Part shown: piece by piece, positions 2,992 through 30,900 of the stretch
Position numbering within the stretch: position 1 is the first letter of the stretch
Layout of the letters: every line of letters starts with the position of its first letter
Notes under the pieces: generated by a model
Databases searched by the model: none
What the model was told of the DNA's origin: nothing
The model's input: only the letters and a program-made list of their open reading frames with translations
Assembly (NCBI GenBank): GCA_946894095.1
Contig: OX335665.1
Span: forward strand, 5,590,001 to 5,654,000
Length of the DNA: 64,000 nucleotides
Source: Incurvaria masculella
Taxonomy: Eukaryota; Arthropoda; Insecta; Lepidoptera; Incurvariidae
Direction of reading: 5' to 3'
Program-made: the position numbers and the translations under genes

Positions 2992-5900
2992 CAAGCGCTG
3001 CCCACGTCGATCTCGATGCCGGTGTCGATGTCGTGCACGGCGGAGGAGGAGCCGCAGCGCGAGCAGCGCGCGCCGCCCGTGTCGTTCCAGCTGACGCCGC
3101 CGCCGGGCAGCTGCCCGCTGCTCGTGTTCATCAACCCCAAGTCGGGCGGGCGGCAGGGCGCGCGCGTGCTCCGCAAGCTGCAGTACGTGCTCAACCCGCG
3201 GCAGGTGCACGACATCACCAAGGGCGGCCCGGCGCCAGGTGAGGCTCGCAACTCGTACATTTTTTATTTTGTTTTATTTAATTTATTTATTTTCCGTTTT
3301 ACACTAACATATGCAGATAGAACAGTTTACCGGAACTTAAAATACTAACAATAATATATGCACGCAAATAAGATCGTAGAACGGCTCGAAGCCTAGTGGC
3401 GCGGGGACTGGCCTAGCGTACCAGAGGTCTGCGTTCAATTCCGACATGCACCACTGTCTTTCTCTTTCCGAGTTCGATAAGTGCATTTCGTCACGAATGC
3501 GAGCTGCTCCATGATTCGGTATCCATGTAAAACTGTAGGTCCCCTTCCCCTACTAGGTGGTAGGGTTTAAGCCCGCCCGGGTTGGTACCATCGCATTGGA
3601 TGAAAAGATGTTCTAAGCGGCAATGAAAAATTGTCCGTGTTTTCCATCCAGTTCAATGTAGCCGGTCCTGGCATGGCACCTAATTCCTTCGGCAATGTGG
3701 TGTAATGGGTAATATCATAAAGGTAGTTTTGTGATATTAGCCATCCATGTCAGGTTGCATAAAAAAAAAGAAATATTAAAGTTCGATTTTTGTAAAGACC
3801 TAAAATAATGTGGTCTTGCATTTATGTAAAGCAGAACCAAACTGAAAATATTGTTACTTATTACCTAATTCTTTAAAATTTATTTCATATGACGTACCAA
3901 CTTAACCATTGCAAACATCTACACCACTACACCTTCAACTTTAGACACCACAAAATATATTTTATTCAAATACTGAATTGAACATCGAAAATATAATGCT
4001 TCGCTTATCTGTCCAGGCTTGACGATGTTCAAGGACGTGCGGAACTTCAGAGTGATCTGCTGCGGTGGAGACGGCACTGTCGGATGGGTGCTCGAGACGA
4101 TGGGTTTGTTCTTACATACAAATATGTTCATTTGAGTTCGAAAACCATGGCACCTTCATACCATTTTACTGACACAGAGTCAAATAACTTGCTAAATTTG
4201 ACTAGAATCGCAGTAAATTGATCCAGCTGATCTGTGCACGTGGATGTTAACTAATGAGCGTTTTCCTCAGTGTAGTGACAGGAATAGTATGCTCTATCCT
4301 CAGACAGAAATGAATCATATCAACAACATGAAATACGTGTCGACGTCAAAAAATCCAGGAATTCTTGACGTAAAATAATGGTAAATAATTAGAACAAAGT
4401 AAGTGAAGATGTAGATAATTTAGATTTAAAGGTTGAAGACACAACTGACATTTATGAAGGTTGAGAAGTTAATGAACTATCTGATGCAAATATGTTTGAT
4501 GATGACGTTGCAGATAAGGTGCCTCTGGAGACGCAGCCGGCCGTAGGTGTGATCCCGCTAGGCACTGGTAACGACCTGGCCCGATGTCTGCGCTGGGGTG
4601 GAGGGTATGTACATTGTCTTTAACTTTAGACTAAGACATTTGGAGACTGGGGAAAAATCCAAATCTCTGAGGCAGGTCCCAATCACAACTATATGCAACA
4701 TTTTAAGAAACATCGAACGATCCTAAATAAGCTGATCATGCTTCAAATATTAATGAAATTAATGTCTCATCAATGAGTTCTGCCATCTTTACTTTACAGT
4801 GAATAGAGTTGCTTTTTTGCAGCAATATTGTTTCAAAATCCAACATAAATCTCCATTTCAATATAATCTAGGATCCAATATAGGAATGGACCAATAAACT
4901 GTATTTATTACAGGTTAATCACAGCTTTCATGATCATGTCATTGAGTAGGTACATGATAGGTACACCAGAGATCTAAAATGATCACATCACTTTCACTGT
5001 CTTTGTCATAATATTTTAAATTATATTCTTATTTTGTATGGACCTTGCAGGTACTTAAGTAATTAATTTCCAACATTTCACCTGTTTTGCTCACTCTTCA
5101 CTCTTGCTTCACTCAGGAGTGATGGTGGGAGTTTGTTTTTATCCAAGTCTTCAACATTTAAGATACCTGTATTTCAGACGATTAAATGTTTGTTCTTCTC
5201 TGAGTAGCATGTCTTTCGTTCTCAACTGAATACCTGCTTGCGTTTTCTTGCCAACACCGTTTCTATTATGTCAGTGTCTGTCATGTCAGTTTTTATCCTT
5301 AAATATTTGCATACACTCTTGTTTAATATCCCAAAGTCTGTCCTTACTTTTCGTATGGAGTGTAATTTGTTCGAACAATGTAAGCAAAAAAAAGAAGACG
5401 TTTATCCAACACTACCGACAGAGCACATGGGTTATTGTGGGGGAAATAGGTTGTCGGTATGAGATGCTCGATATCCTCTTTGCAGGTACGAGGGGGAGTC
5501 CGTTCATAAGATTCTGGATAAGATCACTCGTGCTAGCACCGTCATGATGGACCGCTGGCTCATCCAGGTCGAAAATAACCCAACCACCGTAAGTTCATGC
5601 ACAATTTCCCTAGTTTTAACTTCTTTCACTAACTAATAAAATAATAAATTCTTTCACTAATCTAGTTTTAACTTTCAACAAAACTACCGTTTTGTTTATG
5701 GTATTTAAGTTAAAATATTTCTTTTTTGTCATTAAACATTAACAGTCGTATTCAAAGTGAGCCTGTCAAAACTTAATGCAAGATTGGCACGGGACTAACC
5801 ATTCAAAAACCGGTTTATTCCGGGCAGTTGTGAAGTTAGTCTGCCCACTCTGAACACGGCTGTATATTATTTGGAAAAATCCAACATCCAAAGTAGCGAC

Positions 5901-21900: not shown

Positions 21901-24900
21901 TATACGATGGTACGGAGCCCTTCGTGTGCGTGTCCGACTCGCACTTGGCCGGTTTTTTTTTATCTTCGCTTACCCACTTAGTAAGTATATACCAACATAG
22001 TACTTTCTATGTGCAAATAAATGAAGCAGCTACACAAGTCACCTTGAGAAGATAGGAAAGGTCGAGTTGCGTGAAGGGCACAAATCGATCGCTGAGCTGA
22101 ATATGCCGCAAGTGGCTCTCGTAATATCGACCGTTGCTTGCACCGTCCTGCGTATCATACACATTCTAGAACAGACGTTCTCAAACTTATTTCGTCTGCC
22201 ACCCACTTTTAGAATTCACCATTTTCCAGCGCCCCCCAAATGGTGTAGCTTTACCACATCTCATAAATCACAATCACAATCATTACTTTAATAATTTTAA
22301 TATAATTTATTATTTTTGATTTCTTATGGGGGCAATTAAATTAAACTTTATAAATAATATTTAGCAAAATAATCGATATATTTTATGTATTTTATGTAGG
22401 TATGTATTTTAGTTTAAAATAGATACATAAAAATATTTGAAAAACACAAATTAGCAAATTTCCATCATGCCTGCCTAGGCAAAATTTGGAATTGAGCTTA
22501 GGGCAGATTTTTTAATCCTTAGATAAACAGCCAGATAGCTATTCGACGGATTTATTTACGCTTCTGCTTATCCATCCAATATAGTAAGTCCATATGTTTA
22601 TTAGTAAAATTATAGTCGGATAATTGTGATAGAAGATATAGACTATCCGTCTTTTGCCAAACGTGAATTTGTTCGCCTAGCCTAGTGGCGCGGGGTCTGG
22701 CCTAGTGTACCAGAGACCTGGGTTCAATACCGACATGCACCACTGTCTTTCTCTTTCCGAGTTCGATAAGTGCATTTCGTCACGAATGCGAGCTGCTCCA
22801 TGGTTCGGAATCCATGTAAAACTGTAGGTCCCCTTCCCCTACTAGGTGGTAGGGTTTAAGCCCGCCCGGGTTGGTACCATCGCATTGAATGAAAAGATGG
22901 TCGAAGCGGCAATGAAAAAAATTGTCCGTGTTTTCCATCCAGTTCAATGTAGCCGTGCTCATAAAGGGAAGGTCCTGGCATGGCACCAAATTCCTTCGGG
23001 AATGTGGTGTATTGGACTAATATCATAGCGGTAGTTGTGTGGTCTTAGCCATCCATGTCAGGTCGCATAAAAAAAAAGTCAGTTCTATACGTACTATCTG
23101 AGGATTGAAAAATCGGCCCTTAGTTTAATAACGGTGTAACTAGTTCTGGCAGTGACGAGAGATGGCGCTGATTAGAAATGTCATAGTAAACGCGAAAGTA
23201 AGAAGTATTTAGTGAGTTTGTACAGTCGTTTCGTCTGAAATCTATACACCTGAAATAGAGACAAATTTGAGATCTCTTTCTGACATGCTGACGTCAACCA
23301 TAGAGTAAAAGGGACTTAGAAATTCCTTCTCTTTCCAGTGTATACATTTGATAAGTAACGACTGTACGTTGTATGACGTTGGCAGTCTATCCCTACTATT
23401 CTTTGTCTATGCCACTACCAAAAAGTCATCAGTGAAGTCATCACCTGTCCAAAAGTTTTAGTGCGCGAGACCTCCGGACGGACACAGGAGCGATGTTCAA
23501 CGTGGCTCGGTACTCGTAACCAGTCATCGAAATATCTGCACGCATTGCAAGAAAATATATTTAAACATATGTGCCCAGTTACTGTCAGGCGAATGAACAA
23601 ACATACAACGCGATTCAAATAAGAACAGGACGGGGCTCGTGACTAACTTCACTCGAATTCGCGAGGGAAAGTACGCGGCAACACCGCGGCAAAGTACTAA
23701 AGTTTGTGAAGTGAAGTGAGCGTTTTATCAGTTTGACATTCAACATGGCGGTGATCCTATTCTTATCTTATTTGAATCGCATTGTCAGCTTCATTCACAG
23801 AACATATAATATCCTGCTTCATTATGACTATCCACTGGACAACCAAGATGAAAGTTCCCAACAGCAGGTTTACGAAGAGAATGACAAGATCACTATGGAC
23901 CTTGGTTTTTATATTTTTCTATTGTGTCTCTATAGTTTCAGCTGCAGAATATAGTTTTTAGTTTTCGAATGGCCCTAACGGAAAAAAATCCATCTGTTGA
24001 ACTTTATTGCTCATCAAATCTTTTGAGGTTATGCAATTTATGTATCAGAAAAAGATGCAGCGAGTTACATTTCGTTAGATCTCGACAACTTCGAGCTTCA
24101 ACTCGGAGATCTCAAGTAAAGTGGCGTTTACGCCAAACCGATGTACGAGCGTTTTCAAATGTATAGAGAATTGAAGAGCGCGCGCAGTGGGCATTGAGCG
24201 AACTATCATTTTCGAGGCGTTGCCGTTTACGCCGACTCCGCTTTTTTATAGAAATCGGTACATAGTCCGAGTTTCATTGTGACAGGTGGTCTTCCCCACA
24301 GAATAAGTAATAAACCTTGTACGGGTTTGACATTTTTACGTAAATTAACAGTTCCGTAAACGCCAATTTAGGTGACAAATCAGACTGCCCATGTAGGAGT
24401 GAGACAATTCGTAAGAGAACTGATTGATCGGCGCTAGCGTCAGTGTATTTCACTAAAACTTGACTCTTGCTGCCGCTATACGGGTACAGATGAGTTTCTG
24501 TCGTCACTCTAGCACCAAATTCCTTACTCTTTGACATTAACCCCAAACAAACGCGGCCATACGAACACCGTGGTCCGATTTGAACTTACGTTACCAAAAG
24601 CGCGTTCACAAATGGTGTCCCGTGAACGGTATGACGTCATCATTACGTAACTCAATGCCGTACCCAGTTCTCACAGGAGGTAAGGCAATGTGTGTGCGAT
24701 TGCAGTGTCACATTTTGACGTCCTATAGCGCCATCTATCGTCTTTCGACCGTTTTACAAACCGTTGAATATCTCTCAGGTGAAAATTCCATTTCACATTT
24801 ATAAAGGTGGCTTCTCACGGCGCGAGTTATCACGCGCCGCGCCGCGCCCGTACGCGCCCCGCGCCATGTGAAGGCCGTGGCCGAGGCCGTGGCTCGGCGT

Positions 24901-27900
24901 GGCGCGGGCTGGCGCGTGGTGGCGCGTCGTATCCGCGTATTCGTTCTGTGATTTCGGCTCGATTTCTCCGACCGTACTCCCGCGTTCGTAAATATGGAGT
25001 GGCCGAATGACACAATTAACGTTTTTTTTTTGTTTCATATGAAAAATAGCTAAACAACTAGTGGAAGCAGCAGCGATGCCTTCTTCTTCCGAAACAGTGC
25101 TCCAAGGCTGGAGGTGGCAATTCGTCTCACACGACATTTCAGGTGTATTGCTTCAGTTTGACTAGCGGCTCGCGGGCTCGCCTAGGCCCGTGCTTGCTCG
25201 AGCGCGGGGCGGCGCCTGATATTAAGGTGGCTTCACACGGCGCGTGATTTCACGCGCCGCGCCGCGCTGATGAGCAAGCACGCGCCTACGCGATCCCGCG
25301 CGTTACCCCTTCTCACGGCGCGTAATATCACGCGCCGCGCCGCCGCGCCAGAGCAAGCACGCGCCTAGGCGAGCCTGCGAGCCGCTAGTCAAACTGAAGC
25401 AGCACACCTGAAATTTCGTGTGAGGCGAATTTCCTCCTCCAGCCATGGATAAATATTTCGGAAGAAGAAAGTATCGCTGCTGCTTCAGTTCTATTTTGTG
25501 GATATAAATAAATAAAAAATAAAATAAAAAAAGCCTTTTATTTCGGACAGAATTCTGGTTAGTAACAATTTTTAGTTAGGATAGTGTTATAAATTATTCT
25601 GTACGAACCCCTCTGCAGGTAAAGGCCTCCTCCAAGGTTAGCCAATCATCTCTGGATTTAGCTGTTTGCATCCGTTTTCACACGGCGCGGGGCGCGTACG
25701 GGCGCGGCGCGGCGCGAGATATCACGCGACGTGTGGAGCCACCATAGGTGGCGACTGACTGGAGCATTTGCTCGATGCGAATATTCACATCGAGCATTTG
25801 CTCGTTGTGAGCAAATGCTCGAGCCACCTGAATATTCGTCGCGAATATTTGTTACACGGTGCTCCACCTCCAGCCACTTGTATCCGAAATGGCGGACGAA
25901 GAGTTAGTGTGTGCTGCGTTCCTTTTAGTTCGATATTGCTATTTAAAGAAGAGAAGAAAGCGCATTTGGACGACAAATTTGCTCCAAATGAGAAATAAAG
26001 CTGGCGGTTTGACCTTGATGAATATTTTGAAAAATCAAGAAATCAGCGGTCAATACAAGAACTTTGTGAGAATGTCTTCGACTGACTTCGAATGCCTAAT
26101 CAATTTAATTGGACCTTTAGTGTGCAAAAAAAACACTAATTGGAGAAAAGCTATAACAGTGACAGAAAGATTATCTTTAACATTGCGTTTTTATGCTTCT
26201 GGTGATTCATTTACAAGCTTGCAGTATCTTTTTAAAATCTCCAGACAACGGATTGGATTCATCGTTAAAGAAGTCAGTGAAGCGATTGTTGAAGTATTAA
26301 AAGACCACATAAAGGTAAGATTTTTTTTTTTATAAGTAAGTAATTTTTAAAACAGAGTTATTTATTATTCTAATCAATTAAATCAGCATACTCTTCCAGA
26401 AATTCTTGGCTATATACTTGTACTGAGGAGGATTCCTGGTCGTTTCCTTGAGGTGCTGGCGAAGTGACTTCAGCGTGGGGCGTTACCGGTGAAGTAGGAT
26501 AAGAATTGGTTCGGTTATTTTCCTGGGGTGACGGCGAAGTTATATCGACATAGGACGTTGAAGGTGATGTCACAGAAACATAGTGGGAACGGGAACGGTT
26601 AGTTGGTTGACTACCGTAAGCTTGATGAGAAAGTGTAGACATATTATTTGAGCGGAATGAGGATGTAGGCTGTTGACAGTTATTAGAATATATATTGTAT
26701 TCATATTCGCCTCGATCGGCACTGAAGACAATGTTAGATATATTCTGCTGCACGTTGGTCCTGGTCTGCCGCGAATATGATCTCAATTTATTTGCGATGA
26801 AAGATGCAAAAGAGTCACACTCGTCCATTTTATCTTTCGACAGTGTTTCCATTTGCTTTCGTTCAGCTGATTTCTTCAAAATGTCAAACGCCGAAGTCAT
26901 TATTTCGTCCGAATTACAGCCACGTTTTCTTTTTTGAGTACATCGTTGATCATTGAGTGGCGGATTTGGTGTAGGTTCCCTATTTTGCTCGGCACTTTGT
27001 GTTATACCCGAGGCATATTCATCGCGCAGCTGAAAAATAAAATGTTTTGTTTGTTACAGGTCCCAACAACTCAAAACGAGTGGCTGAATTTAGCGCAACA
27101 GTATGAATCTTTGTGGAATTTTCCTCATTGTGTGGGTGCTGCGGATGGCAAGCATGTAATGATACAATCACCGATAAACAGTGGCAGTGATTATTATAAC
27201 TATAAACATTTCTTTAGCATTGTACTATTTGCTATTGTTGATGCAAACTATAATTTTATATACGTAAATGTAGGCTGTCAAGGTAGAATTTCGGATGGGG
27301 GAGTGTTTAAGAACTGTGAATTATATCAGCGAATTGAAAACAAATCATTAAATTTTCCGGAACCAACTCCATTGCCGATGCGGACTCAAAACATTCCATA
27401 TTACTTTGTGGGTGACGAAGCTTTTGCTCTATCAGAAAATATGATGAAAGTCTATTCTGGATATCACGCTAAAGGATCTAAGGAGAGAACATTTAATTAC
27501 AGACTTTGCAGAGCCAGAAGAATTGTGGAAAACGTATTCGGCATATTATCAGCAGTCTTCCGAGTATTAAGAAAACCGATGTTGTTGGAACCGGAAAAAG
27601 CTTCGTTGATAATTATGGCAATAGTACACCTCCATAATTTTCTAAGAAGAAATGAAAAGTCCTGTGACACCTACACACCAATAGGAACTTTTGATAAGGA
27701 AATAGAAGGAAATGTGACACCCGGAAATTGGAGAAACGACACTGAAACTAACACGGGTATGTTACCCCTGCCAAATAGACCACGACGAACTACCAGATCT
27801 TTGCAAGAAATACGTAATGAAATTGCCGCATACTGTGTGCAGGAGGGGGCACTGAGCTGGCAAGAAAGATATACATAAAATAAACTTACGGTGTCATCTG

Positions 27901-30900
27901 TCATCCGTGGATCATTTCGATCTAGTACGAATTGCAGAGATTTGTACGCGAACCACGTGCTTGTATATACTTCGTCAGCACCTTAAACAATTTTACAAAA
28001 AATGTACTTATAATTTTAAACTTTTGCACTTGTTTACATCACTATTTTGAGTACGGCAATTACCGCAGTTTGCTTTTATATTTTACTGACAATTCATCCC
28101 GCAACTGGCGCCTAAAGAACGCCCGTAAGCTATGTTCCCCATACAAACGTAAATCGTATTAATCAATTGAAAACCACTTTTCCAATTTACTTGATATTTG
28201 GCATCTAATATCAATCAACAAATATCTATGTCTGCACGTTTTTGTTTTGTTGATAAATCTAAACCAAGTTAAATGACAAGCAAAAGAAACTCCTCATACT
28301 AATTTTCTGTTCTTTGTGGTTTGACATAGGATACATTTTTCGAAAAAACAAAAACGTGCACACATAGATATTTGTTTCCTAAAATTAGTTTTTGGTTTTT
28401 TTTAAATGATTTTTAAACTCCGTTTGTATGAAGAGCGTAATTTTCTGATGCTTACGGACCCATCTTAGAGGATTATGAGGCAAACAAGTTCCATACAACG
28501 GCGCGTGCCTGTTTCCTCAGTCAATTTCGCACATTAAATAAATCAACCGAGAGCTACGTCTGTCCGTTTTAGTTTTTTTTATAACTAAACTTGTATCCAT
28601 GATATACGCGTTTTTGTATTTGTATACAAATTTTTAGAAGCGTATATCTCGGAAGTAAGTAAATGTATCAAAAGCCCTTGGTTGATTTATTTAATGTGCA
28701 AAATTTCAGGACAATATTTCTTAATTTGATTGAGAAAACAGGCACGCGCCGTTGTATTGAACTTGATTGCATCATAATCCTCTTAAGGCCCTAATATGAG
28801 CCGATTGCATTCAGTTCTATAAGGGCGTAAGTAAAACAACATTTAATAAAATTTCAAAATAACTACAACCAATTTCGACAATCAAAAAAGTAAATATTAT
28901 GTAGATTGATGGTTTACAAAGGAGAAGCGAGTGGAAGTGTCGTGCCCGGGCGGCCTAGGAGAACGTACCATAACCAAATCGATGTAATATTACGTAAAGG
29001 TCAGGTACGTAGCACCCGGAATCGTAGAGCATGTATGAAAAGATGTATGTCTGTAGAGGAAGCAAGAGAAGTATGCTGTGATCGTACCGTATGGCGCTCT
29101 ATCATCTCTGCCTACCCCTGCGGGGAACCGGCGTGATGGTATGTATGTTATGTATGTATTGATGGTTTAGACGTAATTCAAAGATATAACTGTAATTATC
29201 TGATGCTTCGTTTTCTCAAGTTAGGCAAGTATGCATAAAAATGCATTAAAAAAGTTTGAACAAAAATTGAAGCGCCCGATATTTATCGTTATACGTCATA
29301 TATAGCTGGTCTCAATAGATCTTTCATCTTTTTAAAATTTCAAATTTATTTATTTAAAAAATTATTAAAATGTGGTTTCACTTACGCCCTTATAGTACTG
29401 AATGCAATCAGGTGTTATCACGAATTGATACAAGTTTAAAATAAATAAAATTAATTAATTAAATAAAAACGGCTTTACCTTTTCCCGTTCCCATAGTCTT
29501 CTTTCCTTTAATTTTTTCTCTTCGCAAAGATGCAAGTAGGCTGGTCATCTTTCTCTTGCATTCTTCCACGTTTTCGTTGATTTCGGCAGCTATTTCAACC
29601 CATGCGTCACTTTTCTTCAATTTATTAAAATGGTCGTGATGGGTAGGGTCCCAGAGTTGGGGATAACTACGATATTTATCGATGAATAAAAGTGTTTTTT
29701 CTTGAGTCCACTGCATTTTATCAAACTCCGCGATACGAACGAGGAAACGCGCGTGTGCTCCTGGCGGTGCTCGCCACAGGTGCTCGCACTAGCGACTGAC
29801 TGCGCGGTGTAACATTCAAAGGGATTCGCCAAAAAACCGACACCGAGGTGGAGCGCGCTCGGCTGCTCGCCGCTCGCCGGCGAGCTGCTCGGCTCGCTGT
29901 ACTGACAGGCCGAATATTCGACTTGTAACGTGCTCGCAGCGAGCGAATATTCTCTGTCAGTCGCCACCTTTACGCGCCGTGAGAACGGGTAACGCGCGGG
30001 CTCGCATAGGCGGGTGCTTGCTCATAGGCGCGCCGTGAGAAGCCACCTTAAGAATTGATTCGATTCCACTTTGAAGTGGTTTATTAAAACGAATGTAATT
30101 TATTCCATGTTGGTGTTTTTGCTTCCGTAAGCGCGCACACAAACGGTGCGAATCTTTTGTGATGCTGACAGCTCTTGGCGTGCAATTTAATAGTTTTTAC
30201 TCATTGAGAGCACTGTACTCGTTTTACAGTTCAAATTTAATGCAATAGACGACAATTGCGACATACTCACGCCTTGGGCCAATTAGGTTTGAGCTGTCGC
30301 CACACACGCGCAGGCAGCAGCCAGCCGAGGCCCGGAAAGAAGTCGGTCCGGTGCAGCAGCTCCGGTCTCGACGGGTCAATGTGATCCGTCATGCCGTTGT
30401 CGTTCCACGCCGAGATGCACCTTTATACCATCAAACCATCACGCCAATGCTGACACGATAGGTTAACACAATATTTATGCATAGCATATAGTAAAATTAT
30501 CGAAAAAGTTATCATCAGTCTTGGGACTCCCGGCCCGAACGGAGGACGCGACACGTCATAAATTTTTAGGTTTTAAATCGGAGATTTTTATAACTACTTA
30601 CCACTTACCCCTACTTTGCAGTGAAATCATCGTTTCAAAAACTTGTTCGAGTTTATGGTAAATAGCATAAAATGTCGTGGGGAATACTTTAAAAACCAAT
30701 TTCTTGTTGTTCTTTCACCCCTTTTCTCATACGGGAAAACTTAAACAGTCGTATTCAGAGTGAACCTGTCAAAGCTTAGTAAGGCCACACAAAAACCGGT
30801 TTAGGTCGACCCTAATTTCATTAATACGCCTACTAAAGTTAGTCGATTAATACTATATGCCTTTCCCGGACGGAAATAATTCCGATCGGAACTCCCTGTC

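What the first reader, a model, noticed from the sequence alone, without database searches (positions are those of the whole stretch)
25889..29716. Two interlocked transposon genes: each one's last exon lies inside an intron of the other
The transposase (+) has exons 25889-26314 and 27060-27878. The MADF gene (-) has exons 29716-29479, 27981-27890 and 27029-26370. Transposase intron 26315-27059 holds MADF exon 3, and MADF intron 27030-27889 holds transposase exon 2. Both frames are fully open and both stops are followed within a few bases by AATAAA. Harbinger elements usually carry these two genes side by side; I know of no description of this layout. The two pre-mRNAs would be complementary over about 1.6 kb, which could limit expression through dsRNA or force alternate transcription.
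Basis: partly seen in the sequence, partly recalled or inferred. Interest (0 to 1): 0.88.

Follow-up and report, generated by a model that had tools for sequence, protein, structure and literature searches.

The report
Transposon family with two interlocked genes
A recently active insect jumping gene carries its two genes locked together, each one's last coding piece sitting inside a gap of the other on the opposite DNA strand, and the same arrangement was found in the 16 distantly related transposon families sampled from the same genome, so it looks like an old, conserved design.

Summary
Confirmed and extended. They lie in a 4,224-bp element (25746-29969) with 14-bp inverted ends. The genome holds 12 full-length copies, window copy included, at least 99.95% identical; 7 of 12 have matching TAA or TTA flanks. 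This is a young, recently mobile family, not a rearranged copy. The interlock is not peculiar to it. In 16 other PIF families sampled from this genome (transposase identities mostly 28-55%) the order is the same: transposase exon 1, MADF last exon (antisense), transposase exon 2, MADF 5' exon(s) (antisense). Two clades use different intron positions in both genes; in clade 2 the junction falls inside the MADF domain, so the domain exists only after the transposase exon is spliced out. The one ISL2EU-like outgroup read has two convergent genes side by side. Metagenome contigs give weak cross-species support. Nine searches with capped listings showed no description. RNA evidence is missing and the selective reason is inference; I favour protection of a co-adapted pair, with neutral persistence a serious rival.

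The parts
25746..29969 (.). complete PIF/Harbinger element, 4,224 bp
   Evidence: 11 further full-length copies of exactly this extent at 99.95-99.98% identity, 7 of them with identical TAA or TTA flanks
25746..25759 (+). left terminal inverted repeat, 14 bp
   Evidence: perfect inverted repeat with 29956-29969; same ends in the other 11 full-length copies
29956..29969 (-). right terminal inverted repeat, 14 bp
25889..26314 (+). transposase exon 1 (residues 1-142)
26315..27059 (+). transposase intron (GT-AG), contains the MADF last exon antisense
   Evidence: 17 of 22 late-starting relatives begin at residues 141-146 of the query
27060..27878 (+). transposase exon 2 with DDE_Tnp_4 domain and stop codon
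29479..29716 (-). MADF exon 1
27890..27981 (-). MADF exon 2
26370..27029 (-). MADF exon 3 with stop codon, inside the transposase intron
27030..27889 (-). MADF intron 2 (GT-AG), contains transposase exon 2 antisense
27982..29478 (-). MADF intron 1, with repeats that also occur elsewhere in the window
27030..27059 (.). 30-bp back-to-back acceptor: ends in CAG for the transposase on + and in CAG for MADF on -
   Evidence: gap2
27879..27889 (.). 11-bp AATAAACTTAC: transposase poly(A) signal on +, MADF 5' splice site on -
   Evidence: gap3; not seen in the other 7 modelled families
26361..26366 (-). AATAAA 3 nt after the MADF stop

Best explanation
The element is a young, intact PIF/Harbinger DNA transposon whose transposase and MADF genes are convergent and reciprocally nested. 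SHOWN from sequence: each gene starts near its own end of the element. Splicing of either transcript would remove an intron holding the partner's antisense exon, giving two coding sequences with no overlap. The order is the same in the 17 transposase families sampled from one genome, in two clades whose intron positions differ in both genes. INFERRED: each gene is read from a promoter near its own terminus, so extended pairing is confined to unspliced RNA. INFERRED from established knowledge of the superfamily (both proteins are needed for transposition; PMC9710019 section 3 and PMC2836001 passages): the layout persists because it makes the pair inseparable. A single crossover between families, or an internal deletion of much length, hits both genes, so a transposase cannot easily be parted from its matched MADF partner. 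INFERRED origin: two tail-to-tail convergent genes, as in the ISL2EU-like outgroup, whose shared 3' region was tandemly duplicated and then lost one copy of each 3' exon.
For: Gene models and homologs. Family: 12 of 12 full-length copies keep an intact transposase frame and all six splice dinucleotides, 11 of 12 an intact MADF frame. Layout: 17 of 17 sampled families (window, L037, L047, L054-L067); the 17 loci held of the 58% and 55% families all show it. Both genes modelled with GT-AG splicing in 8 families, no exon overlap in 8 of 8. Nine spliced MADF models from nine other families all hit Pfam MADF (E 7e-14 to 1e-18); in four clade-2 families the domain spans the splice junction. Tree: the two intron classes fall on two sides of a 100/97 branch, with interlocked families both inside and outside a starred branch that holds proteins of moths, butterflies, beetles, an aphid, a bee, a bug, a stick insect and flies. 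Transposase and MADF distances correlate, r = 0.71, p = 0.0001, 10 families. Outgroup convergent and side by side, one element read.
Against: No RNA data: splicing is inferred from frames, splice signals and homology. All the DNA comes from one genome, many groups were not sampled, and the outgroup is one element; cross-species support is indirect. L060 has only a weak match for its MADF last exon (E = 0.01), L058's is E = 0.003. The MADF acceptor is ambiguous in four models. A poly(A) signal within 120 nt of the stop is missing for the transposase in 3 of 8 and for MADF in 1 of 8 models. The inseparability benefit is untested; correlated distances are expected of any two linked genes, and fish Harbingers, whose layout I did not see, are reported congruent too (PMC9179366). 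Residues ~100-142 of the transposase and ~55-110 of MADF sit on opposite sides of the partner's exon in the two clades, which a single origin plus simple intron sliding does not explain.
Confidence: 0.75

Rival explanations
1. Frozen accident: the interlock arose once in an ancestral PIF element and persists because undoing it would need several simultaneous rearrangements. It has no function.
For: Present in every PIF family sampled, as an irreversible ancestral state would be; compact gaps as small as 11-30 bp leave little room for change.
Against: Both intron positions differ between the two clades, so the parts did move and the topology was kept or regained; a strictly frozen layout predicts shared intron positions.
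Confidence: 0.35
2. RNA-level self-limitation: when both genes are transcribed at once the overlapping pre-mRNAs pair, blocking splicing or feeding small-RNA silencing, so output falls as copy number rises.
For: Stop-to-stop overlap of 1.46-1.96 kb in 8 of 8 modelled families; with no exon overlap, every base of it is intronic in at least one gene.
Against: No small-RNA or RNA data. The family made at least 12 nearly identical copies, so any limitation has not stopped a burst. Exons avoid overlap in 8 of 8 families, which looks more like avoiding dsRNA than using it.
Confidence: 0.2
3. Compaction only: two convergent genes are squeezed into a short element because shorter transposons jump better, and interlocking shares DNA between exons and introns.
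For: 11-bp and 30-bp gaps with signals for both strands in the window family.
Against: The window element carries about 1.5 kb of MADF intron 1 with repeats in it, so it is not under tight length pressure; side by side without introns would be shorter still, and in the outgroup the intronless transposase frame ends 47 bp from its partner.
Confidence: 0.15
4. This copy is a rearranged or mis-predicted element.
For: None found.
Against: 12 full-length copies with the same structure; 16 other families with the same order.
Confidence: 0.02

Closest known systems
PIF/Harbinger superfamily elements with transposase + Myb/MADF genes (zebrafish Harbinger3_DR, rice Ping, insect PIF)
   Same: DDE_Tnp_4 transposase, separate MADF/Myb-like gene, short inverted ends, 3-bp TWA duplications
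   Different: Described as two genes; one paper says they 'appear to be independent' (PMC2836001, passages read). No account of reciprocal nesting was seen in the searches listed. The layouts of Harbinger3_DR and of Repbase entries could not be checked here.
Domesticated insect pairs such as Lepidoptera LPLG2/LPM2 and Anopheles APLG/APM (PMC9710019: outline with abstract, sections 3, 7, 10 and passages read)
   Same: a transposase gene with a neighbouring MADF gene from one PIF insertion
   Different: LPM2 is called immediately adjacent to LPLG2; the Anopheles pairs are next to each other, not always in the same direction, and one is annotated as dicistronic; no inverted ends. The words 'antisense', 'overlap' and 'orientation' do not occur in the main text. 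Figures were not available to me.
ISL2EU (Harbinger-like) elements
   Same: DDE_Tnp_4 transposase plus a second gene; L068 shows convergent orientation
   Different: second gene is YqaJ-like (named by eye), genes side by side, no interlock (one element)
Interleaved or nested antisense gene pairs of animal host genomes (recalled, not from a call)
   Same: exons of one gene in introns of another on the opposite strand
   Different: host genes, not the two partners of one mobile element, and not repeated across many families

Membership tests
PIF/Harbinger | DDE_Tnp_4 transposase | tested here: met
   Pfam PF13359 6.5e-29, 101 bits against a cut-off of 24.8
PIF/Harbinger | acidic catalytic triad | tested here: met
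   D171, D261 and E299 invariant in 8 of 8 aligned sequences, the window's and 7 relatives; their assignment as the DDE triad is recalled
PIF/Harbinger | second gene with a MADF/Myb-like domain | tested here: met
   PF10545 3e-18
PIF/Harbinger | 3-bp TWA target-site duplication | tested here: met
   7 of 12 full-length copies have identical TAA or TTA flanks, 3 of 12 TAA on one side and TTA on the other, 2 of 12 otherwise, the window copy (CAT/TTA) among them
PIF/Harbinger | short terminal inverted repeats | tested here: met
   14 bp, perfect
PIF/Harbinger | mobility dependent on both proteins | not testable with these tools
   recent mobility is inferred from near-identical copies at 12 places; dependence on both proteins is from the literature
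ISL2EU | YqaJ exonuclease as second gene | tested here: not met
   the second gene is MADF
Domesticated PIF gene pair | single copy, no inverted ends or target-site duplication | tested here: not met
   12 full-length copies with inverted ends, 7 of them with perfect target-site duplications

The most novel reading that the evidence does not exclude
Reciprocal interlocking is selected for in insect PIF/Harbinger transposons. It was kept or reinvented while the introns of both genes changed position, because it welds a co-adapted transposase-MADF pair into a unit that recombination and deletion cannot split, and possibly because it gates expression through splicing.
Probability: 0.35. Interest if true: 0.9.

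Novelty: new variant of a known kind. Interest (0 to 1): 0.8.

Why it matters
The two PIF/Harbinger genes have been treated as independent neighbours. If they are interlocked across insects, this changes how such elements are annotated, since gene finders may merge, split or drop exons. It offers a structural reason why transposase and MADF co-diverge and are co-domesticated, and it gives a natural, repeated test of convergent transcription, antisense overlap and splicing in one compact locus. Two intron classes with the same topology also make its origin directly testable.

Tried and rejected
Relatives in viral contigs: 3 scans, none confirmed. Prokaryote genome contigs: one 37%-identity piece, L001, on a contig assigned to a betaproteobacterial bin; its longest match runs without an intron through the residue-142 site (residues 19-225), and no MADF match at E <= 1e-3 was found on that contig. 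The empty-site test by joining the two flanks failed: left and right flanks match different parts of a GC-rich repeat. 'Rearranged copy' and 'chance open frames' were rejected (see observation check). A general combined poly(A)-signal/5' splice-site element was considered from the window's 11-bp gap and rejected: only the window family shows it among the 8 modelled. Three lengths coincide exactly (1709, 3205, 3232); the chance of 3 or more is about 0.0002 in a rough simulation with lengths jittered by 10%. That supports neighbourhood on one contig, not order or strand.

Not seen: figures of the cited papers, Repbase entries, supplementary files. PubMed 17556756 is not held.
Full report
WHAT WAS CLAIMED AND WHAT IS THERE. 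Joining those exons gives a 414-aa transposase and a 329-aa MADF protein, each with a single terminal stop and with GT-AG introns. Pfam finds DDE_Tnp_4 at 6.5e-29 and MADF_DNA_bdg at 3e-18. Full-length relatives exist for both. A 414-aa protein of Cydia fagiglandana matches the transposase at 71% over its full length, the best of 1,971 hits, of which 120 were listed. Seven MADF relatives were found, the best at 45% over the full length, from Cydia pomonella, and conservation continues through all three exons. Coding exons of the two genes do not overlap; the gaps are 55, 30 and 11 bp.

THE ELEMENT AND ITS COPIES. A perfect 14-bp inverted repeat at 25746-25759 and 29956-29969 bounds a 4,224-bp element. 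The window lies in a 552-Mb assembly of 31 contigs. The DNA of exon 1 matches 14 places: 13 in full (12 at 100% identity, one with a single difference) and one short. I fetched all 14. Twelve, the window copy included, are full-length; the other 11 are 99.95-99.98% identical to the window copy. One more (L011) is cut at element position 3,883, and one (L023) is a 685-bp internally deleted derivative. The transposase frame is intact in 12 of 12 and MADF in 11 of 12; all splice dinucleotides are kept in 12 of 12. Flanks are identical TAA or TTA in 7 of 12, TAA on one side and TTA on the other in 3 of 12, and otherwise in 2 of 12, the window copy (CAT/TTA) among them. The family therefore moved recently and moved in the interlocked form. 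The host is probably a moth; that is inference from the nearest proteins.

THE LAYOUT IN OTHER FAMILIES. Transposase exon 2 as protein query gave 142 scored matches in the same genome, down to about 40% identity. I examined 16 families besides the window's: ten loci of the 58% family (L037-L046), seven of the 55% family (L047-L053) and one locus each of 14 others (L054-L067), picked to spread over the list. In 12 of the 16, tblastn places MADF sequence on the opposite strand both inside the transposase intron and downstream of transposase exon 2. In the other four (L056, L057, L059, L065) tblastn with MADF proteins of other families found one side only; the other side was recognised as an open frame, and the two sides joined by splicing give a complete Pfam MADF domain. 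The weakest cases are the MADF last exon of L060 (E = 0.01) and of L058 (E = 0.003). Transposase identities among 15 families run from 28 to 63%, with one pair at 78%; for L066 and L067 the closest family is at 47% and 55%.

SPLICED MODELS. I modelled both genes in L047, L054, L055, L056, L057, L058 and L059 and the MADF gene in L061 and L065, requiring GT-AG sites and open frames. With the window's, eight families have both genes modelled. In 8 of 8 the MADF last exon is inside the transposase intron, transposase exon 2 is inside the MADF intron, and no coding exons overlap. Acceptors for the MADF last exon are ambiguous in L047, L055, L056 and L058; one search used an alternative that was not ranked first there, and every alternative printed for these lies inside the transposase intron. 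L037, L060, L062, L063, L064, L066 and L067 were not modelled in both genes; by eye L060 seems to carry a frame break in its MADF last exon and L064 an insertion in MADF exon 1. The nine MADF models outside the window family all hit Pfam MADF, E 7e-14 to 1e-18. A poly(A) signal (AATAAA or ATTAAA) within 120 nt of the stop was found for the transposase in 5 of 8 and for MADF in 7 of 8, so the tidy signals of the window copy are not general.

TWO INTRON CLASSES. In nine families (window, L037, L047, L054, L055, L058, L060-L062) the transposase intron falls near residue 142 and MADF is cut after its domain, some with an extra intron upstream. In six (L056, L057, L059, L063-L065) the transposase intron falls near residue 100 and the MADF intron falls inside the MADF domain. 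L066 and L067 were placed by matches only and look like the first and second class respectively. In the second class half of the DNA-binding domain is encoded on each side of transposase exon 2, and the full 84-position domain appears only when that exon is spliced out (L056, L057, L059, L065). A maximum-likelihood tree of 29 transposases, L066 and L067 not included, puts the two classes on two sides of a 100/97 branch. Class-1 families lie both inside and outside a starred branch (98/93) that also holds proteins of moths, butterflies, beetles, an aphid, a bee, a bug, a stick insect and flies, whose own layouts I could not see. If the layout arose once and was passed on with these elements, it is older than their spread through insects. 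If it arose twice, the same odd topology was reached twice. Simple sliding of introns cannot turn one class into the other, because residues about 100-142 of the transposase and about 55-110 of MADF sit on opposite sides of the partner's exon in the two classes.

CONTROL. A search for PF13359 in the genome listed 150 scored matches of 390 candidates. I fetched one of the high-scoring ones with a long uninterrupted frame. It is an ISL2EU-like element: the 450-aa transposase frame (minus strand) and a YqaJ-like partner recognised by eye, in two overlapping open frames (plus strand), are convergent and end 47 bp apart, side by side; the best MADF match was E = 0.03. So the interlock is not a feature of every DDE_Tnp_4 element, and a convergent tail-to-tail arrangement exists in a sister group. 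This is one element only.

OTHER ORGANISMS. Of the 120 listed transposase hits, 22 align only from beyond residue 100 of the query, and 17 of these 22 start at residues 141-146, the intron point of class 1; they include open frames on short metagenome contigs that read through a typical acceptor. A profile of MADF exon 3 found 21 proteins, 16 of them new; four (P0131, P0135, P0136, P0137) read FQL at the start of the exon, like the window's acceptor. Three of the 16 share their exact contig length with three of 22 transposase contigs (1709, 3205, 3232 bp), chance about 0.0002 in a rough simulation. The two exons thus probably neighbour each other in other organisms. Order and strand there are unknown.

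HOW IT MOST LIKELY WORKS. Shown: gene order, splice signals, exon non-overlap, conservation, recent mobility. Inferred: transcription of each gene from its own end; splicing removes the partner's antisense exon, so long complementary stretches are confined to unspliced RNA. Inferred: the benefit is that recombination or deletion cannot part the two partners. Transposase and MADF distances correlate across ten families (r = 0.71, permutation p = 0.0001), as expected if partners are never swapped, but linkage alone would do the same. Origin by tandem duplication of the shared 3' region of two tail-to-tail genes, with reciprocal loss of one copy of each 3' exon, is a hypothesis that no call tests.

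WHAT IS IN PRINT. Nine full-text searches, several with capped listings, returned no paper that I recognised, from listings and abstract openings, as describing interlocked PIF genes. [quoted passage not shown] 'antisense', 'overlap' and 'orientation' do not occur in it. PMC9179366 (abstract, outline, passages) reports congruent transposase and Myb-like phylogenies in fish; its main text has no occurrence of 'orientation', 'overlap' or 'opposite'. PMC2836001 (passages) says the two genes appear to be independent. PMC10027918 (passages) bears only on MADF domestication. Older structural papers (Kapitonov and Jurka 2004; Casola 2007; Sinzelle 2008) and Repbase are recalled names that I could not read; one of them may show such exon maps without comment.

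VERDICT. It is a known kind of transposon with an architecture that appears undescribed and is shared by all 17 PIF families sampled in this genome. The purpose of the layout is open; RNA data and other genomes would settle how far it works and how far it reaches.

Noticed in passing
25743-25745 and 29970-29972 and the flanks of L012-L022: Three of 12 nearly identical copies have TAA on one side and TTA on the other, more than mutation should give in so young a family; flanking bases may be carried over from the donor site (inference).
   Followed up: partly
L023 (G000:C20:14841059-14846558): A 685-bp internally deleted derivative with both ends and TAA flanks, about 16 kb from the truncated copy L011.
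   Followed up: partly
24806-24872, 25260-25325, 25677-25743, 29970-30035: GC-rich MITE-like repeats, one with an end reading AAGGTGGCTTC, flank the element and share the tip GGTGGC with its ends, so they may be mobilised by the same or a related transposase.
   Followed up: no
28112-28786 and 29024-29158: MADF intron 1 carries repeats found at several other places in the window; they were inside the element before the burst, since all 12 full-length copies align without gaps over them.
   Followed up: partly
L068 (G000:C3:23146700-23151200): ISL2EU-like element with a 450-aa DDE_Tnp_4 frame and a YqaJ-like partner (named by eye), convergent and side by side.
   Followed up: partly
G000 contigs C20 and C21: Many of the listed PIF matches lie here, several of them single ones (by eye); perhaps a sex chromosome or other repeat-rich region.
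   Followed up: no
L001 (JAHZIU010000197.1): A contig filed under a betaproteobacterial MAG carries a eukaryote-type PIF transposase piece, probably contamination.
   Followed up: no
25762-25826 and 29905-29950: Palindromic subterminal motifs (GAGCATTTGCTC on the left, GAATATTC on both sides) near the ends of the element (sequence; part of them), possible MADF or transposase binding sites.
   Followed up: no
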